From: Microcoleus sp. EPA2
Lineage (GTDB): Bacteria; Cyanobacteriota; Cyanobacteriia; Cyanobacteriales; Microcoleaceae
Length of the DNA stretch: 64,000 nucleotides
Assembly: GCA_020882975.1 (NCBI GenBank)
Contig: JAHRFD010000026.1
Location: forward strand, 1 to 64,000
Reading direction: 5' to 3'
Positions 28,996 to 41,832 of this stretch are shown here, one piece after another. The position numbers and the translations under genes were made by a program. The notes below the pieces were generated by a model, which was given only the letters and a program-made list of their open reading frames with translations, had not been told where the DNA came from and searched no databases. Within the stretch, counting starts at the first letter, position 1, and each line of letters starts with the position of its first letter.

Positions 28996-30189
28996 ATGGC
29001 AACAGCTATTCTCGACCTTGAAATTTCTCAACTGCCGCCAGAAATAGTGTTTGAGAAACCCTACAGCCAAGCGCTGGTGTTAATTCGATCGCACGGAAAT
29101 CCGATCGGCCAAGCAACTTTGCCAGTAGTCGGAGGTCGCATTGGCGGCGATGAATTACGGGAAACACTGACGCAGGCTGTGGGGAAAAACCTTGGAAAAA
29201 ACTGGCTTTGGGATGCCTTAGCATGGGACGAACGGGGGCCTGTGCAGCCTGTGCCGATCGCCACCGTAGCGGTTTGCACGCGCGATCGCCCGGAAGATTT
29301 GCAGCGCACTCTTGAAGCATTGATGGGACTGCCCGATGATGGTCAGGAATACTTGGTAATTGACAACTGTCCCGCCACGGATAGTACCAGGGAACTGGTC
29401 AAAAATTACCCAAAAGTCCGCTATGTGCGGGAGGATGTACCGGGTTCCAGCGCGGCCCGCAATCGAGCTTTACGGGAAGCTAAACACGAATTCGTGGCGT
29501 TTACAGATGACGATGCGACTCCCGATCGGCACTGGTTGCGATCGCTCTTGCAAAATTTCAGTGACCCCAGAGTGATGTGCGTCACGGGCCTAGTGATGCC
29601 ACTGGAACTGGAAACAGAAGCCCAAGAATGGTTTGAGCGCTACAGCCCCCACGGGCGGGGATTTGAGCGCCTAGTGTTTGATGGGGCCCACAGCAATCCT
29701 CTGGTTGTGCATCTGGTGGGGGTTTCAGCGAGTATGGCTGTGCGTTCAAGTTCGATGGAGTTTATCGGGCTGTTTGACGAAGCTTTGGGGGCCGGAACGC
29801 CGGCGGCTAGCGGGGAAGACTGCGAATTTTTTACCCGCATTTTGCGATCGGGCTACTGCATTGTCTACGAGCCCAGGGCCTTGAGTTGGCATCGCCATCG
29901 GCGCACTTGGGAAGAACTGCGGAATACTCTTGAAGGCTATGGAGTGGGAGTCTATGCTTTTTGGACGCAGATGATTTTGGTGCATCGAGAATTCGGCGTG
30001 ATGCTGTTAGGCTTGTCATGGTTGTGCTACAAACAAATTCCTGAACTAATTGCTTCATTGCGAAAGCAACCGGATGCTGTTCCTAGTGATTTGCTGTTGG
30101 CTCAATTACGGGGCTGCATGAGGGGGCCGATGGCTTATTTTGCTTCTAGGAAGTGGTTGCAAAAAATCAAGGAAGAAATTATTAGTTAG
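28996..30189 (+). CDS. Family 2 glycosyltransferase with N-terminal accessory module
   Basis: 397 residues. Residues about 23-65 form a short module (ALVLIRSHGNPIGQATLPVV) that recurs in two other proteins of this cluster. A GT-A domain follows from about 88: VAVCTRDRPEDLQRTLEAL, the DXD-type metal site FTDDDATPD, GSSAARNRAL, and an acidic catalytic region SGEDCEFFTRI. C-terminal hydrophobic stretch (GVMLLGLSWLCYK) may associate with the membrane. Predicted to add a sugar from a nucleotide donor during assembly of the exported glycan. First gene of the cluster. Confidence 0.9.
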   Translation: MATAILDLEISQLPPEIVFEKPYSQALVLIRSHGNPIGQATLPVVGGRIGGDELRETLTQAVGKNLGKNWLWDALAWDERGPVQPVPIATVAVCTRDRPEDLQRTLEALMGLPDDGQEYLVIDNCPATDSTRELVKNYPKVRYVREDVPGSSAARNRALREAKHEFVAFTDDDATPDRHWLRSLLQNFSDPRVMCVTGLVMPLELETEAQEWFERYSPHGRGFERLVFDGAHSNPLVVHLVGVSASMAVRSSSMEFIGLFDEALGAGTPAASGEDCEFFTRILRSGYCIVYEPRALSWHRHRRTWEELRNTLEGYGVGVYAFWTQMILVHREFGVMLLGLSWLCYKQIPELIASLRKQPDAVPSDLLLAQLRGCMRGPMAYFASRKWLQKIKEEIIS

Positions 30190-30269
30190 TTATTTGTTAG
30201 TTGTTAGTTGTTGATTATAATAACCGATGCCCGATTCCCAATTCCCAATTCCCAATTCCCAATGTAAAT

Positions 30270-31616
30270 ATGGAAAACATAACATTTAGTATAGTTCTAA
30301 TAACTCACAACCGCAGTTATTCGCTGCGCCGGGCTTTGGATGCTTTGCAATTACAGACTTATCCCTTAGAACTCATCGAAGTTAGGGTGGTTGCAGATAG
30401 CTGCATTGACGATACTTTAGCAATGTTAGAAGAGTACAAAGCTCCTTTTAAACTGCAAATAATTGAGGCAAATTGCCGCAGTGTGGGTATGTCTCGTAAT
30501 GTGGGAGCAGCGGAGGCTACTGGACAAATGTTGCTGTTTCTCGATGATGATATAGAACCAACTCCCTGTTTAGTAGAAAACCATTTGCGAGTTCATCAAG
30601 AACATCCGGGCTGCGCTGCGATCGGTCCTTATCCACCAAAGTTACGCTCCAGGACTAAGTTTTTTGAGATAGAAGTGCGGACTTGGTGGGAGGAAAAATT
30701 TTACCAGATGAGCAAGCCCGATCACCGCTATAGTTATCAAGATTTGCTCTGTGGCAATCTTTCTATTGAGACTAAACTGTTTGCTAGCACCGCAGGTTTT
30801 GATTCTGCTTTCGGTCCTGGTACTGCTTATGAAGATTATGAATTCGCCTTGCGTCTGCTCAAGGCAAAAGTGCCTTTTGTGGCGGCACCGGATGCTGTTG
30901 GCTATCATTATGAACATGAAACTAATAATCTCGATCGCTCTTTTGGTCGTGCTCGTGCGGAAGGGCGATCGGATGTTTTGATCGGTGAGCGACACCCAGA
31001 AATCAAACCCTTTCTACACATCAAGGACTATGACACTCCTGATGCGTTGGTAGATAAAATTTTGGTGGCGATGGTGTTTCTATGGCCAGCCGGCTTAGAT
31101 TTGTTGACTATCGGACTCAGAAAATCCCTTGACTGGCTGGAATACCTGGGGATGCGGGGTAGTTGGCGGTGGCTGCGGACGAGACTATTGGCTTACTCCT
31201 ATTTGCGGGGGGTGATGGATAGTTTGCCAACGCGATCGGCTGTGGCGAGTTTTATGCAATCTGGAACGGCTAGCGCGGCTGTCAGGGCACAGGAAATTGA
31301 AATTGACTTGCAGGAAGGTTGGTTGGAGGCAGAGCGAATCATTGACGAAAAACGACCGGATGGGGTTCACCTGCGTTACGGTGAAATTCCGGTGGGTCAC
31401 ATCGCCCCGAAAGTTGGTATGGAACCACTACGAGGGGTTCACTTGCGTCCAATTTTGGCAAATACGATGGGGGAGGAATTGCTAGGGGCGATCGCCCTTA
31501 AGGGTATGCCGAAAAGTGCTACCCAGAATGAGTCTAGTTTAGTTGACAACCGCCTACTTCAACATCTACAGTTATCTATAGTATTGGACCCAAAAATCAG
31601 CGATCGTCCTTCCTAG
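30270..31616 (+). CDS. Family 2 glycosyltransferase with C-terminal accessory module
   Basis: 448 residues from the ATG at 30270 (MENITFSIVLITHNRS). A longer frame from 30201 reads through TTAGTTG and ATTCCCA repeats and is rejected. GT-A core: LITHNRSYSLRRAL, metal site FLDDDIEP, GMSRNVGAAEA and TAYEDYEFALRLL. A C-terminal segment about 365-415 (HLRYGEIPVGHIAPKVG) matches the module in the GT upstream and in the sulfotransferase protein. It follows the first glycosyltransferase in the same direction, so shared transcription is likely. Confidence 0.9.
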   Translation: MENITFSIVLITHNRSYSLRRALDALQLQTYPLELIEVRVVADSCIDDTLAMLEEYKAPFKLQIIEANCRSVGMSRNVGAAEATGQMLLFLDDDIEPTPCLVENHLRVHQEHPGCAAIGPYPPKLRSRTKFFEIEVRTWWEEKFYQMSKPDHRYSYQDLLCGNLSIETKLFASTAGFDSAFGPGTAYEDYEFALRLLKAKVPFVAAPDAVGYHYEHETNNLDRSFGRARAEGRSDVLIGERHPEIKPFLHIKDYDTPDALVDKILVAMVFLWPAGLDLLTIGLRKSLDWLEYLGMRGSWRWLRTRLLAYSYLRGVMDSLPTRSAVASFMQSGTASAAVRAQEIEIDLQEGWLEAERIIDEKRPDGVHLRYGEIPVGHIAPKVGMEPLRGVHLRPILANTMGEELLGAIALKGMPKSATQNESSLVDNRLLQHLQLSIVLDPKISDRPS

Positions 31617-31766
31617 AAAGCAGCTACAGGGAGAAACCTGGTTTGTGACGACAATATTATATTTAAATCTTTAATAATGGCAAAAACCAGATTGATTGCT
31701 TCCTCCTGCTTAATTCTTATGATTTTAACCAAGATGAATGGGTCGTTAAATAATTAGGAATCAACC

Positions 31767-31907
31767 ATGGTAATTAGGGCACTAAAACTGATGGGAGTCG
31801 ATTTTTTACAATCAAGGGCTGAGCCAGGAACTCAGGTGCAGCTTGAATGGGTGGAGACTACACAACCAGAACTTGAAATAATGGATGGGGTATGCTGTGA
31901 AAAATAG
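31767..31907 (+). CDS. Possible 46-residue small protein upstream of the ABC permease
   Basis: An ATG preceded by TTAGGA opens a 46-codon frame (MVIRALKLMGVDFLQSRAEP...GVCCEK). It overlaps the permease start (31885) by 23 bases, which could couple translation. I do not recognise the sequence, and it could be chance. Confidence 0.35.
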   Translation: MVIRALKLMGVDFLQSRAEPGTQVQLEWVETTQPELEIMDGVCCEK

Positions 31908-32688
31908 GGTAAATGTGGGGTACATTCGCAAAATCATTCATTTCTTTGATTTGCTGCGGGTGTTGGTCGATCGAGATATGAAATTACTTTACAAGCGATC
32001 GTCTTTAGGTATTGCTTGGACTTTAATCAGTCCGCTGTTACAGTTAGCTGTATTTTCCTTTGTGTTTCGCTCCGTAATACCGATTAATGTTTCTAAGTTC
32101 TCTTCGTTTGCGTTCAGCGGTTTGTTAATATGGACTTGGAGTCAGACAGCGCTATTCAAATCGACGGCACTCATTACCAACAACCGCGCTTTAATTAGAC
32201 AGCCAAATTTTCCCACAGAAATTTTACCATTGGTGACAACAACCACGGGGTTAATTCACTTTTTGCTGGCGCTACCAGTGCTAATTATTTTTCTGGCTGT
32301 GGATGGCGTGCGGCCTAGTTATGTACTGCTGATTTTACCGCTATTGATGTTGATTCAGTTTATTTTGACCGTGAGTTTTGCTTATCCACTAGCTGCGTTG
32401 AATGTCACTTTTCGTGATACTCAACACACTTTGGGTGTGCTGTTACAGATGTTTTTTTACCTGACTCCGATTTTTTACGACCTCAGCAGCGTCCCGGAAT
32501 CCTATCGGGGATTGTATCAGTTAAATCCCATGGTACCTCTGATGCAAGCTTACCGCGATGTACTGTTGAGAGGTATTCAGCCGGATTGGCTAGCACTGTT
32601 TATTGTCAGCGCTGTTGTGGCTGCTCTTTTTCCGATCGGGTTGGGGATTTTTCGACGCCAAAGCAATCGTTTTGTGGAGGAATTGTAA
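31885..32688 (+). CDS. ABC-2 type polysaccharide export permease (Wzm-like)
   Basis: 267 residues with about six membrane helices. The N-terminal amphipathic stretch FFDLLRVLVDRDMKLLYKRSSLGIAWTLISPLLQL is the conserved ABC-2 family hallmark of O-antigen and teichoic-acid exporters; the later FFYLTPIFYDLSSVPESYRGLYQLNPM is equally typical. It moves lipid-linked glycan across the inner membrane with the ATPase gene that begins on the next base after its stop (32689), so the pair is clearly an operon. A GTG at 31898 is a possible alternative start. Confidence 0.93.
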   Translation: MGYAVKNRVNVGYIRKIIHFFDLLRVLVDRDMKLLYKRSSLGIAWTLISPLLQLAVFSFVFRSVIPINVSKFSSFAFSGLLIWTWSQTALFKSTALITNNRALIRQPNFPTEILPLVTTTTGLIHFLLALPVLIIFLAVDGVRPSYVLLILPLLMLIQFILTVSFAYPLAALNVTFRDTQHTLGVLLQMFFYLTPIFYDLSSVPESYRGLYQLNPMVPLMQAYRDVLLRGIQPDWLALFIVSAVVAALFPIGLGIFRRQSNRFVEEL

Positions 32689-34758
32689 ATGCGTCCAGCT
32701 ATTGTTGTTAAGGGTTTGGGGAAACGTTTTAACCGCTACAGTGCCGATCGACCTTTTACTATTATGGAGGCCGCTTTGTGGGGATGGTGGCGGATGAAAC
32801 CCCAGGCTCATTTTTGGGCGCTGCGTGATGTGAGTTTTACGGTTTCTCCTGGGGAAATGCTGGGAATTATTGGCAAAAATGGGGCCGGAAAATCGACCCT
32901 ATTACAACTTGTGGGCGGTATTGGCTGCGCTGAGGAAGGGACTATTGAGGTTAATGGCAGAATTGGTGGTTTGTTGGATTTGGGTGCGGGTTTTCATTTG
33001 GATTTAACTGGTAGAGAAAATGTGTTTGTGGGGGCGGTGGTGGCTGGTTTGACTCACAGAGAAGCGGGGCGTCGGTTTGATGATATTGTTGAATTTGCGG
33101 AGTTGGAAAAGTTTATTGATAGCCCCATGCGGACTTACAGTACGGGGATGCAAATGCGGCTGGCTTTTTCGGTGGCGGTTCACACCGATCCAGAAGTGCT
33201 TTTAGTAGATGAACATTTGTCGGTTGGGGATGTGGCTTTTCAAACTAAATGTTTGAATAAGATTAATGATTTTAAGAGTCAAGGTTGTGCAATTGTTTTG
33301 ATTTCTCACATGGCTGAGCAAATTCAGAAAATGTGCGATCGCGCTTTGTGGTTGCGATCGGGTACAATCATGGCTTACGGGCAGACTGAAGCCGTAATCA
33401 GTCAGTATTTGGGGGAAATGGGTTCGGAAACTGAAATACTTAATCCTCTGATTGTTCCTCAAGTAACAACGGTTGGTACACAGCAAGTTAGTCAAAATCG
33501 CTTTGGTTATTTAGGTATCAAAATTACTGAGGTAAAAGTGTTACCGGATGGCGAAATTGAGAGTGGAAATCCTGTAACTATTGAGATTGATTATGCGGTG
33601 GAAAAGTCAATTTCTGGTGTGATATTTGGGGTGACAATTAGCCGGAAAGACGGTCAAGTTTGTTTCGATATTAAGACAAATAAAATCGGTCAATTGCTAC
33701 CGCTGGCTCCTGGTAGTGGTAAAATTAGGCTGTATTTAGATAGATTAGATTTGGGGAATGGTCAATATTATGTAAATGTTGGGGTTTATGAAAAAACCTT
33801 GGCTTATATTTATGATTATCGCCATCATGTTACTCCGTTGTATGTGCGATCGCCTTTACGTCAAAACACGATTCTTTGTCCTCCTTACCGCTGGGAGTTG
33901 GATGGTCAAATCGAGAGTGCCCAATTACCAAATCAAGTTGACAAAACTCACCCGATTAATAAAAACAATCCCAATTATGCGACAATTTTGACTCAGGTGA
34001 AACAGCAGAGTAGGCCTAATTTTTTACTGGTGGGTTCTCAACAATGCGGTATTGAGGGTTTGTATCGATATCTGGAAAATTCCTTGCAAATTATTCAAGC
34101 AGGTGCTAGAAAAGTTCACTTTTTTGACTTAAATTACGATCGCGGTGTCGAGTGGTATAGCCAGCAGTTGACTCTGGGTGTGGCGGGAGATACAGTGCTG
34201 CGCTGGGAGATGACTCCTGAGTATATGGATCATCCTTTGGTAGCCCAACGGGTTTATAAGTGTTTCCCCGATGTGAAATTAATTATGATGCTCAGAAATC
34301 CAGTGCAAAGAGCATGGATGCACTATAATTTGGAAGTGGCGATGGGTTGTGAAGAGTTCGATGTTACCAAGGCGATCGCTTCTGAGTGCGATCGGCTAGC
34401 AGGTGAAATTGAAAAAATGCGCTCTACTCCAAATTACCACAGTTTTAATCACCAGCACTACTCCTATTTGTCGCGGGGTATTTATGTGGAACAAATCAAG
34501 AATTGGCTCGACTATTTCCCACGGGAACAATTGTTGATTTTGAAAACCGAAGATTTTCAAGCAAATTCCGATCGCGTGTTGTCTGAAGTGGGTAATTTCT
34601 TGGATTTTAGCGCTAGTGCTGGGGAGGAATTTGAGATTAATAGTGTTGAGAATGATAGTAAAATGCCAGAAGCGATCGAGCAAAAGTTAATCGCTTATTT
34701 TGAACCTTATAATCGGCAACTTTCTGATTTATTGAAGGAGGATTTTAGTTGGAGTTAG
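32689..34758 (+). CDS. Wzt-like ABC ATPase fused to a sulfotransferase-like domain
   Basis: 689 residues. ABC ATPase about 1-245: Walker A GKNGAGKST (62-70), signature YSTGM (150-154), Walker B VLLVDE, and H-loop LISHM. Residues about 270-405 look like the Wzt carbohydrate-binding C-terminal fold. Residues about 443-640 are a sulfotransferase domain of heparan-N-sulfotransferase type: FLLVGSQQCGIEGLYRYL (5'-phosphosulfate loop, where the usual Lys is Gln), KVHFFDLNYDRG, EMTPEYMDHP and LIMMLRNPVQRAW. The fusion would couple export to glycan recognition or sulfation. Loop substitutions make activity doubtful. Confidence 0.88.
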   Translation: MRPAIVVKGLGKRFNRYSADRPFTIMEAALWGWWRMKPQAHFWALRDVSFTVSPGEMLGIIGKNGAGKSTLLQLVGGIGCAEEGTIEVNGRIGGLLDLGAGFHLDLTGRENVFVGAVVAGLTHREAGRRFDDIVEFAELEKFIDSPMRTYSTGMQMRLAFSVAVHTDPEVLLVDEHLSVGDVAFQTKCLNKINDFKSQGCAIVLISHMAEQIQKMCDRALWLRSGTIMAYGQTEAVISQYLGEMGSETEILNPLIVPQVTTVGTQQVSQNRFGYLGIKITEVKVLPDGEIESGNPVTIEIDYAVEKSISGVIFGVTISRKDGQVCFDIKTNKIGQLLPLAPGSGKIRLYLDRLDLGNGQYYVNVGVYEKTLAYIYDYRHHVTPLYVRSPLRQNTILCPPYRWELDGQIESAQLPNQVDKTHPINKNNPNYATILTQVKQQSRPNFLLVGSQQCGIEGLYRYLENSLQIIQAGARKVHFFDLNYDRGVEWYSQQLTLGVAGDTVLRWEMTPEYMDHPLVAQRVYKCFPDVKLIMMLRNPVQRAWMHYNLEVAMGCEEFDVTKAIASECDRLAGEIEKMRSTPNYHSFNHQHYSYLSRGIYVEQIKNWLDYFPREQLLILKTEDFQANSDRVLSEVGNFLDFSASAGEEFEINSVENDSKMPEAIEQKLIAYFEPYNRQLSDLLKEDFSWS

Positions 34759-34778
34759 GGAAAGATTTTTTTACCACA

Positions 34779-34862
34779 GAGAGCGCAGAGAGCGCAGAGA
34801 GTGCTGAAAAAAATATGAATTATACCTCTTTCTTTTCTTCCTCTGTGCCCTCTGCGCTCTAG
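34779..34862. repeat. CAGAGAGCGCAGAG-type intergenic inverted repeat
   Basis: AGAGAGCGCAGAGAG at the left is complementary to CTCTGCGCTCT at the right, with T/C-rich sequence between. A relative (CCACAGAGAACACAGAG) occurs at 62697. It may act as an intercistronic hairpin before the sulfotransferase gene. Confidence 0.7.
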
Positions 34863-34913
34863 TAAGGTGAATTCAAAAAAATCTTATTCAGCAACAATTT
34901 ATCAAGTATCAAC

Positions 34914-37325
34914 ATGAAACGGATATTTTTAGTGGGTGCTCCCCGAAGCGGTACGACACTGCTTCAGAGTTTGTTAGCTGCTCATCCTGAAATTATTTCT
35001 TTTCCCGAATCTAAGTTTTTTCAGTATTTACTGTATAATAAGTTTGTTAAAAAGTTTCCCGCTAGACTCTCAGCTTTTTTTAAGGATGAAATTAATCGTC
35101 CTGAGTTTTTACAGGATTTTGATAACAGCCAATCTACGGATGTTAAAGTGAGTTGGTTTGTCGGTGTTTTAGATGGTTTGGCTGCGGAAAAGCAGAAAAG
35201 TATTTGGTTGGAAAAAACACCGGAACATCTATATTTTATTAAAGATATAGAACGCTTTTTACCTGATGCTAAGTTTATCTATATCTGGCGCAATCCTATG
35301 GATACCATAGCTTCTCTTTATGAAGTTACTAGGATTTCCCCGGAATTGTGGGGCGATGGCTGGGATTTAGACCATTGTATTAAACGTTGGCAAGAGGGGG
35401 TGTTAACTAGCTACAGTCATGTTCACAAGTCTAATCATAAACTGGTGAAATATGAGAATTTGTTAGAGGATAAAACTAAATTTTTAGCGGAGATATGTGA
35501 TTTTCTTGAAATTGATTATGATAGTAAAATGCTGGTAAATTATAAAGCCAAAGCTGCTAATTTAAGTTTGAATTTACCTTGGCATACGGGACTTGCAAGA
35601 GATATTGAAAGCAGTAAAGTTTATAAATATCATAGTTGTTTTAAAAGCCGGGAAATTCAATATATTTTAGATAAAATCAAGGGTGTAAATTCGGAAATTG
35701 CCGCGCGGGTTAAGGTGGAGGTGACTGAACCTATTTCAGATATTGAGATTCCGCACATATTCGATCGCCTTTACTGCACTGTCCAACTAGAAGGTGTTAA
35801 ACTTGGAGTTGTTGAATTGCCAGTATGTGACGGGATGGTGGCTGGCGCGGTTTTGGCAGATGCGATCGCAGCTAAGTTTGCTTGGCCAATTCTGCAACGC
35901 TTTTTTCAATATAGAACCTGGGAAAGTATACGTCATTTATCGGAAAGTTCTCTGAGTAAATTGCATCGAAAAATTGAAGGGAAGGATTTTTTACAGGAAA
36001 TATGGGATGGTTGTGATGATGATTCTAATCCTCAGTTAAGGAGAAATGAATTATCAATTATTAGTCATAGTCAAGACTTGATTGTGGTGGAAATTAGCGA
36101 AGAATTGCCCAATATTCAAGTTGATTTTTCGGAAATTGATGTGTTGGTGAAAGTCGGCGGTGTTCCGATTGGGATTGTCACAGTTGCGGTTGAAGATAAT
36201 TTGGTTTCTGCGGAAAAAGTGCGATCGGCAATTATTCAAAATACCAATTTTGAATTGTGTGTGGCTGCGGTGCGGGAGGCTTTGTTGGGAAGACCGCTAG
36301 ACGGTAAGATGTCGCTACGATCGCATTTAGCCTTGTCTGCTCAAAAAATGGCGAATGCCTCCAACAGCTTGAATGCAGGGGTTTCTGGCGGTATTTACCC
36401 ACGGGATGCGGTGATATTTGGCAGGCATCAGGGGGCGATCGGAACCAGTGTTAGTCGTCGGGCTACACTACCAGTGGCGGCGCTGCGGGAATTAGCAGAA
36501 GTGGCGGAAATTTCCGGGGAAAAGATAATTCCCATATTTCTAGCAAACGACTTTCCCAAACAAATAATTTACGCACCGGAAATCCTCGATCAAAATCCCG
36601 GCGATGGAGAAGTTTCTAAATCAGTTAAATCTCAATTTTTTAACAATAAGACTGTTACTCAACAACTGCCAATTTTTGCATACCGCCAGATTTCTCCCGA
36701 CGGTTTCAATGCAGTGACTCCCCAGGGTTTTGCACAACAGTTGCAGAGGCTTAAAAAGCAAGGCTATTATAGTGTGAGTTGGGAAAATTGGCAAAGTGCA
36801 AAACTCACTAAAACTGCTTTACCTGGTAAACCTATGTTGCTGACTTTTGACGGTGGTTATCTCGACTTTTTGGAATATGCTTTCCCTCTGCTACAACAGT
36901 TTGACTTTACTGCAACGGTGTTTGTAGTAGCAGAGTCCATCGGTAAGACAAATAGTTGGGAAAAAGCAGATTCGCCAGCAGTCCAATTAATGGGATGGCC
37001 GGAAATTAGACAACTGCGGGATGCTGGGATAGAGATTGGTTCCATGTCTGCTACTTATCAACCTCTGACTGGTTTGTCGCCCACAGAAATTGTGCGGGAA
37101 GCGGCAAAATCTCGTGCTATTTTGGAAGGCGGATTGGGGAAATATGTTAAATGTTTTGCTTATCCCTACGGGAGTGTGGATCAAATTGTAGAGCATTTAA
37201 TAGGAGCTATAGGCTATACTTTTGGTGTAGGTTACGGCTCAAGATTTAGTAGTTTTGCCGATTCTTTATTGTCGCTTCCTCGGATGCAAGTTACCGCCGC
37301 TAATTGGGGAAAATTAGGTGGCTAA
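34914..37325 (+). CDS. Sulfotransferase - double module - degenerate NodB protein
   Basis: 803 residues. Residues 1-260: PAPS-dependent sulfotransferase with intact GAPRSGTTLLQSLL and FIYIWRNPMDTIASLYE. Residues about 284-322 (VQLEGVKLGVVELPV) and about 408-446 (VLVKVGGVPIGIVTV) are two copies of the module seen in the neighbouring glycosyltransferases. Residues about 585-800: NodB-like polysaccharide deacetylase fold (IFAYRQISPDGFNAV, FAYPYGSVD), but TFDDG is TFDGG (644-648) and the H-x3-H metal motif is M711-SAT-Y715. Catalytic deacetylation is therefore unlikely; the domain may bind glycan. Last gene of the cluster. Confidence 0.87.
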   Translation: MKRIFLVGAPRSGTTLLQSLLAAHPEIISFPESKFFQYLLYNKFVKKFPARLSAFFKDEINRPEFLQDFDNSQSTDVKVSWFVGVLDGLAAEKQKSIWLEKTPEHLYFIKDIERFLPDAKFIYIWRNPMDTIASLYEVTRISPELWGDGWDLDHCIKRWQEGVLTSYSHVHKSNHKLVKYENLLEDKTKFLAEICDFLEIDYDSKMLVNYKAKAANLSLNLPWHTGLARDIESSKVYKYHSCFKSREIQYILDKIKGVNSEIAARVKVEVTEPISDIEIPHIFDRLYCTVQLEGVKLGVVELPVCDGMVAGAVLADAIAAKFAWPILQRFFQYRTWESIRHLSESSLSKLHRKIEGKDFLQEIWDGCDDDSNPQLRRNELSIISHSQDLIVVEISEELPNIQVDFSEIDVLVKVGGVPIGIVTVAVEDNLVSAEKVRSAIIQNTNFELCVAAVREALLGRPLDGKMSLRSHLALSAQKMANASNSLNAGVSGGIYPRDAVIFGRHQGAIGTSVSRRATLPVAALRELAEVAEISGEKIIPIFLANDFPKQIIYAPEILDQNPGDGEVSKSVKSQFFNNKTVTQQLPIFAYRQISPDGFNAVTPQGFAQQLQRLKKQGYYSVSWENWQSAKLTKTALPGKPMLLTFDGGYLDFLEYAFPLLQQFDFTATVFVVAESIGKTNSWEKADSPAVQLMGWPEIRQLRDAGIEIGSMSATYQPLTGLSPTEIVREAAKSRAILEGGLGKYVKCFAYPYGSVDQIVEHLIGAIGYTFGVGYGSRFSSFADSLLSLPRMQVTAANWGKLGG

Positions 37326-38745: not shown

Positions 38746-39564
38746 GTGTCATATGTTAGCGTATCTTTCGTAAATTGCATTTTTTCGATATCGATCGTGG
38801 CAAACACTTTTAACTTAACTAACAATGCTGATAATTTTACAATCGCTCCTGGTTTGATGGCTCAGTTTCCTGGAGGTGTTTTAGGATTAGGAAGCAATGA
38901 TACCATTGTGGGTTCGATTGAGAATGATATCGCCAATGGCAATGATGGTGGAGATATTTTATTCGGGAAAGATGGGAATGACAACTTGCAAGGCGGTAAA
39001 GGCGATGATGATTTATACGGTGAAGGTGGCAGAGACATTTTGACTGGTGGTTCTGATGATGATTATATCGTAGGTGGTGACGGAGATGATGTCTTGAATG
39101 GCGGCCGAGGTGATGATTTATTAGAGGGAGGTGCGGGTAACGATACTCTCAGTGGCGATCGGGGTTACACTTATTACAGAGGCGGAACGGGTAGCGATGT
39201 GTTTGTGCTGAGAACGGATGTTGTGGCAGAAGATCCAAGGCGTAACTCTAACCGTAGTTTTAGTGGTTCGGCATGGGATGCTATTCTAGACTTTGAAAGG
39301 TCGGTCGATCGCATTGGTTTGACTGGCGGTTTAACTGAGGCAAATATTACACTTATTCCCTTTTCTTTCGCGCTATCGAGTGTTATTTTCGTTTCAGGGA
39401 GGTTTCCTCGAGAAGGCAAAATTTCAGCCGCCGATACAGATGTAGATAAAAATGGCCGTTATGACGGTACTACGATTCAAATTGCTGCCACAGGTCAAAT
39501 TTTAGGTAGAGTGCTGAATGTGATACCATCTGACTTGCGGGGTCGTTTTATTACACTCTCGTAA
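38746..39564 (+). CDS. Hemolysin-type calcium-binding (RTX) repeat protein
   Basis: 272 residues. Residues about 50-145 contain around nine RTX nonapeptides (such as GGKGDDDLYGEGGRDILTGG), and the C-terminal part has TDVDKNGRYDGTTIQ, a Ca-binding-like loop. Typical of type I secreted surface proteins. The upstream hydrophobic stretch MSYVSVSFVNCIFSISIV may be untranslated leader: a GTG at 38797 gives VANTFNLTNN and is as likely a start. No enzyme domain. It could be a surface-layer or adhesion protein. Calcium-dependent folding is inferred from the family. Confidence 0.82.
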   Translation: MSYVSVSFVNCIFSISIVANTFNLTNNADNFTIAPGLMAQFPGGVLGLGSNDTIVGSIENDIANGNDGGDILFGKDGNDNLQGGKGDDDLYGEGGRDILTGGSDDDYIVGGDGDDVLNGGRGDDLLEGGAGNDTLSGDRGYTYYRGGTGSDVFVLRTDVVAEDPRRNSNRSFSGSAWDAILDFERSVDRIGLTGGLTEANITLIPFSFALSSVIFVSGRFPREGKISAADTDVDKNGRYDGTTIQIAATGQILGRVLNVIPSDLRGRFITLS

Positions 39565-39924: not shown

Positions 39925-41832
39925 TTAGACGCTAACAGGTGACTGTTTGCGGCTGTATGTTGCCAAGATACGATCGCACATTTGCGATGGAGTTAAACCC
40001 AAAGTTGCAAAGGATTGTTCCGGCGTTGCGTGATCTACCAATGTATCAGGTACGCCCAAGCGCATTACTGGCACAACCACGTTATTATCTAGCAAAGCTT
40101 CGGCCACTGCTGAACCGAAACCGCCCATCAAACAGCCTTCTTCCATGGTGACAACTTTGCCAATTCGCTGGGCTAAAGGCAAGATTAATTCGGTGTCTAA
40201 AGGCTTGACAAAACGCGCATTAATCACAGTTGCTTCGATGCCGTGTTCGCTCAACATCTCGGCGGTTTGCATTGCTGGATACACCATGGAACCGTAACCT
40301 AATATCAGCACGTCGTCCCCGTTGCGCAGGATTTCCGCTTTGCCGATCGGCAATTCTTCCCAACCTTCTTCCATCAATGGTACGCCGTAACCGTTGCCGC
40401 GCGGGTAACGCATGGCGATCGGACCGCTGGTATGGTTGACTCCCGTGACTACCATCCGCTGCAATTCTGCCTCGTCTTTTGGCGCCATAATTGTCATATT
40501 CGGCAGACACCGCAAGAAGGAAATGTCGTACATTCCTTGGTGAGTCGGGCCGTCTGCACCGACGATTCCGGCTCGATCTAAGCAGAAGAAAACAGGCAAA
40601 TTTTGGATGCAAACATCGTGAACGATTTGGTCGTATCCACGCTGTAAAAATGTCGAATAAATTGCCACTACCGGGCGCATTTTTTCGCACGCTAAACCAG
40701 CCGCTAAAGTGACGGCGTGCTGTTCGGCAATGCCGACATCAATGTACTGTTTAGGCAGTTTTTCCTGAAGTTTATCTAAGCCAGTTCCCGTTGCCATGGC
40801 GGCGGTAATGCCAACAACTTTGGGATTATTTTCTGCTAGTTTAACTAGACAGTGGGCAAAAACTTTTGAGTAAGCTGGAGGCTTGGGTTTGGTGGAAGGA
40901 ATGCCTTTACCTGTGGCTAAGTTAAAGGGATTTTGGGCGTGATATCCTACTTGGTCTTTTTCGGCGATCGCATATCCTTTGCCCTTCACCGTTACAACAT
41001 GAACTAACACCGGCCCTTGGATGGTATGACCTTGTTTGAAAGTGGCAATTAACTCTTCCAAATTGTGTCCGTCTACTGGCCCCATGTAGGTAAAGCCTAA
41101 TTCTTCAATGACGGCTCCAACTTTAGACACGGCTAACCGTTTCATCCCTTCTTTGAGGCGTTCCATTTCAGGAGTAAATGTTTCGCCCACAAACGGAATT
41201 TGTTTGAATTGTTCCTCTAAGTTATCTTTGAGAAATTGCACCGGCTGGGAGAGTCGCATCTTGTTCAAATAGCGAGTAATGGCGCCGACATTGGGGGAGA
41301 TTGACATCTCGTTGTCGTTGAGCACTACCATCACATTAGTTTTCGGCATATGACCTGCGTGGTTAATCGCTTCGAGTGCCATACCCCCTGTCAGGGCTCC
41401 GTCGCCGATGACTGCTACTGTTTTAAAGTTTTCACCTTTGAGATCCCGCGCCATTGCCATTCCCAGAGCTGCGGAAATGCTTGTAGAAGCGTGGCCGGCA
41501 CCAAAATGGTCAAATTTGCTCTCGCAACGCTTGAGATAGCCTGCAACGCCGTCTTTTTGGCGCAGGGTATGGAATTGGTTGTAGCGGCCGGTGATTAGTT
41601 TGTGTGGGTAAGCTTGGTGGCCGACATCCCAGGTTACTTTGTCGCGATCGAGGTCTAGTGTCTGGTAGAGTGCTAAAGTCAGTTCGACTACGCCCAATCC
41701 GGGGCCGAGGTGCCCGCCACTGGCTGCTACAGTTTCTAAATGCTTTTCTCGAATTTGTCTGGCAATTTGTTCGAGTTGATGAATGGACAAGCCATGTAAT
41801 TGGTTTGGGTGAGTCAGTTCGCTCAGATGCAT
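39925..41832 (-). CDS. dxs: 1-deoxy-D-xylulose-5-phosphate synthase
   Basis: 635 residues, full length. First enzyme of the MEP isoprenoid pathway; condenses pyruvate and glyceraldehyde 3-phosphate using thiamine diphosphate, supplying carotenoid, phytol and quinone precursors. Seen: [33 protein letters not shown] (ThDP-Mg motif GDG...), [38 protein letters not shown] (catalytic Glu) and PRGNGYG. Start ATG at 41832; its ribosome binding site is not obvious. Gene stands alone, convergent with the repeat region to its left. Confidence 0.98.

What the first reader, a model, noticed from the sequence alone, without database searches (positions are those of the whole stretch)
28996..37325. ABC glycan-export cluster with two sulfotransferase fusions and a recurring module
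Five genes on one strand: two family 2 glycosyltransferases, an ABC-2 permease, a Wzt-type ATPase with a C-terminal sulfotransferase domain, and a sulfotransferase-NodB-like fusion. The permease and ATPase genes abut with no spacing. Sulfotransferase domains attached to both the export ATPase and a NodB-like protein would tie sulfation to export. Sulfated exopolysaccharide made by Wzy-type clusters is known in Synechocystis (synechan); an ABC-exported variant with a sulfotransferase built into Wzt is, as far as I know, unusual.
Basis: partly seen in the sequence, partly recalled or inferred. Interest (0 to 1): 0.85.

Follow-up and report, generated by a model that had tools for sequence, protein, structure and literature searches.

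The report
Glycan exporter carrying a dead sulfotransferase
A gene cluster of Microcoleus-type cyanobacteria probably makes and exports a sulfated surface sugar chain, and the exporter's extra 'sulfotransferase' part looks like a disabled enzyme kept to recognise the chain rather than to sulfate it.

Summary
The five genes are real, at the stated coordinates, and conserved in the genus (Microcoleus/Tychonema). The Wzt-sulfotransferase fusion is found in 26 of 29 same-genus genomes (25 full length, 1 split between contigs), in fixed order. In a 386-genome phylum sample only this genus has it; one unsampled sister-genus genome has it too.

The fused domain is a sulfotransferase by descent (heparan-sulfate type), but its PAPS site is eroded. 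The 3'-phosphate Ser is gone in 28 of 28 fused copies and present in 24 of 24 unfused relatives. All 27 genus copies have Glu/Asp in the 5' loop where unfused ones have Thr/Ser/Asn. Yet the domain is under purifying selection. In gene 5 the sulfotransferase looks intact, but the NodB domain lost two metal ligands in 21 of 21 copies.

Best reading: gene 5 sulfates (perhaps caps) the glycan, and the dead domain on Wzt helps recognise it. Recognition is inferred.

The 'recurring module' is an unnamed ~75-residue domain on glycosyltransferases under at least 12 phylum-level names. It mostly lies near ABC exporters: Wzm and/or Wzt hits in 69 of 78 loci; of 11 other loci, one has Wzm-Wzt, ten a HepA-like exporter.

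The parts
28996..30189 (+). Gene 1: N-terminal module + family 2 glycosyltransferase (397 aa)
   Evidence: relatives in 78 GTDB loci
28996..29232 (+). Module copy 1 (N-terminal in gene 1)
   Evidence: AF2 model of residues 1-88
30270..31616 (+). Gene 2: GT2 (EpsD-like, below the NCBIfam cut-off) with C-terminal module; ATG at 30270 preferred over TTG at 30201
31356..31505 (+). Module copy 2 (C-terminal in gene 2)
31617..31884 (+). Gap where most relatives carry a third module-glycosyltransferase (~414 aa); no remnant of it detected here; an internally deleted copy in L056 and weak C-terminal remnants in L053-L055
31885..32688 (+). Gene 3: ABC-2 permease (Wzm)
32689..34758 (+). Gene 4: Wzt ATPase + Wzt_C + degenerate sulfotransferase domain (689 aa)
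33493..33849 (+). Wzt_C carbohydrate-binding domain (aa 269-387)
34018..34626 (+). Sulfotransferase-fold domain of Wzt, PAPS site eroded
34033..34062 (+). Eroded 5'-phosphosulfate loop (aa 449-458)
34318..34320 (+). Codon of residue 544, Met here, where 24 of 24 unfused relatives have the 3'-phosphate Ser
34914..37325 (+). Gene 5: sulfotransferase - module - module - NodB-like (803 aa)
34923..35522 (+). Sulfotransferase_3 domain with intact PAPS motifs
35709..35912 (+). Module copy 3
36081..36284 (+). Module copy 4
36819..37223 (+). NodB-like domain with metal ligands lost

Best explanation
The cluster is an ABC-transporter-dependent pathway for a surface glycan. Genes 1 and 2 (and in most relatives a third module-glycosyltransferase) build the chain in the cytoplasm. 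Gene 5 adds sulfate with an intact, PAPS-dependent sulfotransferase domain, probably to the chain end or another late site. The glycan is then exported by Wzm-Wzt. The sulfotransferase-like domain fused to Wzt has most likely lost catalysis and is kept as an added glycan-recognition domain next to the normal Wzt_C domain, so that only correctly finished chains leave. The dead NodB domain of gene 5 probably serves likewise as a sugar-binding part. The small module probably docks these enzymes to each other, to the exporter or to the membrane. Shown: domains, order, conservation, loss of the site residues, purifying selection, neighbourhood of the module. Inferred: loss of activity, sulfation of this glycan, recognition by the dead domains, docking by the module.
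For: Conserved set and order. Fused domain matches 3rnl, HS 3-O-sulfotransferases and NDST1 by phmmer (4e-19 to 5.8e-7). The 3'-phosphate Ser is lost in 28 of 28 fused copies and kept in 24 of 24 unfused relatives (Fisher 2.3e-15 treats related copies as independent). Glu/Asp at the second Thr place of the 5' loop in 27 of 27 genus fusions, 0 of 24 unfused; the first Thr kept in 14 of 27 against 24 of 24. dN/dS of the domain 0.127, as low as ABC 0.151 and Wzt_C 0.160, linkers 0.31-0.38 (13 sequences). Of 71 positions conserved in the 18 closest unfused relatives, 50 are kept in at least 90% of genus fusions, 13 in part, 8 lost, that Ser among the lost. The Glu of the EASP/EMTP motif is kept in 28 of 28. 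Gene 5 sulfotransferase motifs kept in 30 of 30 ST-headed copies aligned. NodB Asp and first His lost in 21 of 21 ST-headed copies, all three ligands present in 3 of 5 distinct GT-headed relatives. APS kinase present in the genome. Precedent: the CBM on Wzt reads the terminal cap (passages of PMC11231755, and PMC3482155).
Against: No biochemical data. In 20 of 27 genus fusions the 5'-loop Lys is still present and the Arg of the 3' motif is kept in all 27, so weak PAPS binding or activity cannot be excluded. HS 3-O-sulfotransferases also depart from Thr at the second Thr place (Arg). G034 and G036 have the gene 5 sulfotransferase but a plain Wzt of 408-410 aa, so the two parts are not obligatorily paired. 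The AF2 model of gene 4 is poor in this domain (block means about 33-82 pLDDT), so the pocket could not be checked. Sulfate, the sugar, and the capping position have not been seen.
Confidence: 0.5

Rival explanations
1. One reading: the Wzt domain is an active sulfotransferase that sulfates the chain while it is exported.
For: Fold and much of the sequence kept, including the Glu of the EASP/EMTP motif in 28 of 28 and the 5'-loop Lys in 20 of 27 genus copies.
Against: 3'-phosphate Ser lost in 28 of 28 and acidic residue in the 5' loop in 27 of 27 genus copies, while 24 of 24 unfused relatives, including two in the same genome (L001, L002), keep the Ser.
Confidence: 0.12
2. The fused domain is dead and acts only in protein-protein contact: it holds the real sulfotransferase (gene 5) or the glycosyltransferases at the exporter, as pseudoenzymes often do, without binding sugar.
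For: Purifying selection without an intact PAPS site; gene 5 follows gene 4 in all 26 loci that hold gene 4.
Against: No interaction data; the acceptor-side Glu is kept in 28 of 28, which fits a kept acceptor pocket at least as well.
Confidence: 0.25
3. The fused domain is a relic with no function, tolerated at the C-terminus.
For: PAPS site eroded; sister lineages G034 and G036 lack the domain.
Against: dN/dS 0.127 and 78% mean identity, like Wzt_C; full length kept in 25 of 29 genus genomes.
Confidence: 0.08

Closest known systems
Capped O-antigen ABC systems (E. coli O8/O9a, Klebsiella O12, O4): Wzt with C-terminal CBM plus a chain-terminating enzyme such as WbdD
   Same: Wzm-Wzt pair, Wzt_C domain, a multidomain modifying enzyme encoded beside the exporter (passages of PMC11231755 and PMC3482155)
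   Different: Wzt carries a second, sulfotransferase-derived domain; the modifying enzyme is sulfotransferase-module-module-dead NodB, not methyltransferase/kinase; cap not shown
Synechan (xss) cluster of Synechocystis 6803
   Same: Cyanobacterial cluster with two sulfotransferase segments and several glycosyltransferases (passages)
   Different: Wzx/Wzy export; two separate sulfotransferase genes; no fusion to an exporter mentioned in the passages
ABC-type clusters with sulfotransferase genes in other cyanobacteria, and A. salmonicida wbsalmo with a separate sulfotransferase-like ORF after wzt
   Same: Sulfotransferase gene near wzm/wzt (passages)
   Different: No fusion described in the passages read; [quoted passage not shown] salmonicida O-antigen
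Heparan sulfate 3-O-sulfotransferases / NDST (PDB 1t8t, 1nst)
   Same: With 3rnl, the closest solved relatives of the fused domain by sequence
   Different: The 3' Ser is present in the aligned 3-O-sulfotransferases and lost here
PgaB/IcaB-type CE4 (NodB) deacetylases
   Same: Sequence homology of the gene 5 C-terminus
   Different: Two metal ligands lost in 21 of 21 ST-headed copies

Membership tests
ABC-dependent glycan export (Wzm/Wzt) | ABC-2 permease next to a Wzt-type ATPase | tested here: met
Wzt with C-terminal carbohydrate-binding domain | Wzt_C domain (PF14524) over the curated cut-off | tested here: met
   69.6 bits, cut-off 30.4; only weak direct hits to solved Wzt domains (6o14 0.11, 7k2t 0.21)
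Capped-chain ABC systems (WbdD type) | A terminator enzyme whose cap is needed for export | not testable with these tools
   architecture only; coiled coil not tested
Sulfotransferases (gene 4 domain) | Homology to the fold | tested here: met
   PF00685 38.6 bits, cut-off 22; 3rnl, HS3OST, NDST by sequence; AF2 model too poor to add
Sulfotransferases (gene 4 domain) | PAPS-binding 5'-PSB and 3'-PB residues (definition recalled) | tested here: not met
   3' Ser lost in 28 of 28; acidic residue in the 5' loop in 27 of 27 genus copies; Lys kept in 20 of 27 and Arg in 27 of 27
Sulfotransferases (gene 5 domain) | PAPS-binding residues (definition recalled) | tested here: met
   PRSGTT loop and 3' Ser kept in 30 of 30 ST-headed copies aligned
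CE4/NodB deacetylases (gene 5 C-terminus) | Asp-His-His metal site (definition recalled) | tested here: not met
   Asp to Gly and first His to Met/Leu in 21 of 21 ST-headed copies; second His kept in 7 of 21
Synechan-type Wzx/Wzy clusters | Wzx, Wzy and PCP genes in the cluster | tested here: not met
   none among the five genes and two downstream genes scanned
PUA-like domains (for the module) | Significant profile or fold match | tested here: inconclusive
   Methyltranf_PUA best 0.0033 in 3 of 66 members; Foldseek best E 0.3, some PUA-type chains among weak hits

The most novel reading that the evidence does not exclude
A writer-reader pair made from one enzyme superfamily: an active sulfotransferase (gene 5) writes a sulfate mark on the glycan, and a dead sulfotransferase built into the exporter ATPase reads it, so a biosynthetic enzyme has become the cargo-recognition domain of an ABC exporter. 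The associated ~75-residue module would be an undescribed, widely distributed docking tag that gathers glycosyltransferases and modifying enzymes at ABC glycan exporters of two different architectures (Wzm-Wzt and HepA-like).
Probability: 0.3. Interest if true: 0.82.

Novelty: new variant of a known kind. Interest (0 to 1): 0.62.

Why it matters
How ABC exporters choose finished sugar chains is known for only a few O-antigens. A decayed enzyme turned into a recognition domain would be a new way to build such a check, and can be tested directly with purified protein. The module offers a sequence handle for finding glycosyltransferases that feed ABC exporters in many phyla. Sulfated cyanobacterial glycans are also of practical interest as materials.

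Tried and rejected
Rejected: (1) active sulfation by the Wzt domain, because of the eroded PAPS site. (2) Active NodB deacetylation in this genus. (3) My early idea that the module always lies beside Wzm-Wzt: 69 of 78 loci found through gene 1 relatives have a module with a Wzm and/or Wzt-type hit (65 both, 4 one only), but only 1 of 11 further loci found with the module profile alone; the other 10 have a HepA-like full ABC exporter instead. (4) Equating those loci with the Anabaena heterocyst island: the Anabaena alr2836 and alr2837 genes are about 320 codons by the coordinates in PMC2211374 (passage), too short, and the exporter scores 578-582 bits against the NCBIfam HepA cut-off of 725 in the two loci scanned. 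(5) A known name for the module: best Pfam hit E 0.0033 in 3 of 66 members, best PDB sequence hit E 0.42, best PDB fold hit E 0.3.

Led nowhere: viral contig scans for the fused domain (nothing; 32 stretches, none confirmed). The gene 4 AF2 model is too poor in the sulfotransferase part to judge the pocket (mean pLDDT 66.8, 42 rows, of which 21 are fusions covering that domain). Two low module hits (G431 0.0033, G322 0.0059) have no glycosyltransferase or exporter context with my profiles and were dropped as probably false.

Rows dropped or limits: L168 is cut before most of NodB and was left out of that count; L173 has no module but stays in the 78; dN/dS used 13 of the 21 window and named-locus fusion sequences. 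The 20 control GT2 loci were taken down the ranked list, skipping module regions and near neighbours; they come from 7 of the 11 genomes of the test loci. The HepA profile was built from two of the 11 test loci (L246, L250), which favours those two. One search scored only about four candidates per genome. Only cyanobacteria were sampled for the fusion.
Full report
Observation. The five genes are present as described. Gene 1: GT2. Gene 2: GT2, better start at 30270. Gene 3: ABC-2 permease. Gene 4: ABC ATPase (aa 45-176), Wzt_C (269-387), Sulfotransfer_1 (444-646, 38.6 bits, cut-off 22). Gene 5: Sulfotransfer_3 (4-203) and Polysacc_deac_1 (636-770). Genes 3 and 4 abut exactly. Downstream: an FAD (geranylgeranyl-reductase-like) gene on the other strand and an RTX-repeat gene, then a gene on the other strand (39925-41832) that I take to be dxs from its sequence (recalled, not scanned).

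Conservation. Gene 4 is found with at least 687 of 689 residues in 25 of 29 same-genus genomes and split between two contigs in one more (G016); G001, G005 and G010 show no full copy. G005 and G010 are 74% and 84% complete, and in G001 gene 5 lies at the start of a contig, so gene 4 may be cut off there. Titles of the closest named loci mostly read Microcoleus, Tychonema or an unnamed Oscillatoriales. Gene order is GT1-GT2-(GT3)-Wzm-WztST-STNodB (27 loci, several cut by contig ends). GT3, a third module-glycosyltransferase of ~414 aa, is present in 20 of the 26 loci that cover the interval, cut by a contig end in one (L042), absent in four (L032, L053-L055) and reduced in one (L056, 189 aa). 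The reduced copy is an internally deleted one; L053-L055 show only weak C-terminal matches (best E 0.002-0.006); nothing was found in the window. In a sample of 386 cyanobacterial genomes (142 genera) a stretch covering both Wzt_C and sulfotransferase occurs in 7 genomes, all of this genus (about four candidates per genome were scored). In the sister genus g7, one of three genomes (G035) has the fusion; G034 and G036 have a plain Wzt. Long gene 5 matches are seen in 28 of 29 same-genus genomes, some in pieces, and in the three g7 genomes; among the other 29 of the 61 family genomes no listed row pair shows both parts together, though that list was cut.

The fused sulfotransferase domain. By sequence it belongs to the heparan-sulfate type: phmmer matches 3rnl 4e-19, HS3OST5 2.8e-15, HS3OST3A1 about 1e-14, NDST1 7.4e-8. 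In a tree of the domain the 28 fused copies form one clade (support 1.0) next to an unfused enzyme, L215 (0.994; midpoint rooted). In all 28 fused copies the Ser of the 3'-phosphate motif is Met, Leu or Val; in 24 of 24 unfused domains it is Ser. In the 5'-phosphosulfate loop all 27 genus copies carry Glu (25) or Asp (2) where unfused ones carry Thr, Ser or Asn; the preceding Thr is kept in 14 of 27 against 24 of 24; the loop Lys is Gln or Asn in 7 of 27 genus copies, Phe in G035, and Lys or Arg in 24 of 24 unfused. HS 3-O-sulfotransferases carry Arg at the second Thr place, so that position alone is not decisive; the acidic change together with the lost Ser and the loose loop is the argument. 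Against full decay, the 3' Arg is kept in 27 of 27 genus copies and the Glu of the EASP/EMTP motif in 28 of 28. Of 71 positions conserved in at least 90% of the 18 closest unfused domains, 50 are kept in at least 90% of the genus fusions, 13 in part and 8 in at most 10%. Nei-Gojobori dN/dS medians over pairs of 13 sequences (78 pairs; 76 for the second linker): ABC 0.151, Wzt_C 0.160, sulfotransferase 0.127, linkers 0.380 and 0.310. So the domain is maintained but probably not as an ordinary enzyme. Which residues bind PAPS is recalled from the literature on these enzymes, not from a call.

Gene 5. Its sulfotransferase domain keeps the PRSGTT loop and the 3' Ser in 30 of 30 ST-headed copies aligned, and resembles CurM and tyrosylprotein sulfotransferases. 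Its NodB domain has Gly for the second Asp of TFDD and Met or Leu for the first His in 21 of 21 ST-headed copies (18 of the genus, 3 of g7); the second His is kept in 7 of 21. In relatives with a glycosyltransferase head all three ligands are present in 3 of 5 distinct proteins (L156, L180, L204) and partly lost in L161 and in a second G119 protein. Of the GT-headed proteins scanned with Pfam, L161 and L204 also carry a NodS-like methyltransferase domain and the 981-aa G119 protein does not. Thus the module pair links different head enzymes (ST or GT) to a NodB domain, intact or degenerate.

The recurring module. About 50-80 residues, in gene 1 (N-terminal), gene 2 (C-terminal), the relatives' GT3 (N-terminal) and gene 5 (twice), not found in genes 3 and 4. 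No named family fits: best Pfam E 0.0033 in 3 of 66 members, best PDB sequence E 0.42, best fold E 0.3. AF2 of residues 1-88 of gene 1 on a 66-row alignment: mean pLDDT 77.8, pTM 0.57, block means 83-88 for the first 60 residues; strands 3-9, 16-18, 25-32, 35-43, 48-50, then a helix 51-79 whose later part is less sure. A distant PUA-like relation is hinted at by weak hits (Methyltranf_PUA; TruB, RsmF, ASCH-type and YTH chains among Foldseek hits with E above 0.4) and is unproven. Relatives of gene 1 occur in 78 loci (the best 80 of 265 confirmed stretches were kept) under at least 12 phylum-level names, several of them apparently isolates (Flavisolibacter, Segetibacter, Ornatilinea, Defluviimonas, Rubellimicrobium, Haloferula); many others are MAGs, where misbinning is possible. 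In 69 of the 78 the module and a Wzm and/or Wzt-type hit are present (65 with both, 4 with one); of 174 module ORFs 160 lie within 6 kb of such a hit on the same strand. Of the nine others, eight have the module without exporter in the fetched stretch (seven of these stretches are shorter than 14 kb) and one (L173) has no module. About a quarter of the 78 are loci of this same genus (20 carry the fusion), so they are not independent.

A less biased test. A 66-row module profile found 22 of 386 cyanobacterial genomes (14 of 142 genera). I fetched 11 loci not seen before. One lies beside Wzm-Wzt, ten have a full-length HepA-like ABC exporter in the stretch (774-1303 bits with my own profile; 578-582 bits with NCBIfam HepA, below its cut-off of 725, for the two scanned). 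Of 20 control GT2 loci from 7 of those 11 genomes 2 lie beside Wzm-Wzt (L267, L270), none has a HepA-like exporter of that score, and 6 have weaker ABC exporters (213-473 bits). Strictly 11 of 11 against 2 of 20 (Fisher 9e-7); counting the weaker ones 8 of 20 (0.0014). The test is small, and the HepA profile came from two of the test loci.

Mechanism. In known capped systems the CBM on Wzt recognises a terminal residue or modification and only finished chains are exported (passages of PMC11231755; PMC3482155). This cluster keeps Wzt_C and adds a decayed sulfotransferase domain, with an apparently active sulfotransferase encoded next door and an APS kinase in the genome. A reader role for the decayed domain is the most economical explanation, but a scaffold role is a serious rival. 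That gene 5 acts at the chain end is conjecture.

Literature. [quoted passage not shown] Full-text search for Wzt with sulfotransferase gave 4 papers; passages of three were seen and none describes a fusion; the fourth, PMC11976392, was seen only in listings. A search for pseudoenzyme, sulfotransferase and PAPS gave none. The census of Mann, Kimber and Whitfield (2019), most likely to have met this architecture, is not held, so absence from print is not established.

Verdict. Real, conserved and unusual; the stated mechanism is partly wrong in an informative way. I score interest 0.62.

Noticed in passing
   Followed up: no
L242-L247, L249-L252: Other module-glycosyltransferases lie near HepA-like full-length ABC exporters in other cyanobacteria; product unknown.
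   Followed up: partly
L169, L170, L174, L175, L178-L181, L183-L185, L188, L190, L191, L193-L202, L204: Tandem module-GT-module-GT proteins of ~850-930 aa near Wzm-Wzt. The first GT of the 881-aa protein at L117 11331-13976 has a degenerate DDD region.
   Followed up: partly
L036, L037 (G008, G002): Gene 1 is duplicated in tandem in some relatives.
   Followed up: no
L214, L216, L217: Sulfotransferases of ~525 aa with the sulfotransferase domain in the first half only; partner domain not identified.
   Followed up: no
window 38746-39564: RTX nonapeptide-repeat protein downstream of the FAD gene; a relative is assigned in some genus loci and not in others.
   Followed up: no
window 34758-34914: The intergenic stretch before gene 5 holds short GAGCGCAGA-type direct repeats and a matching inverted stretch (seen by eye).
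   Followed up: no
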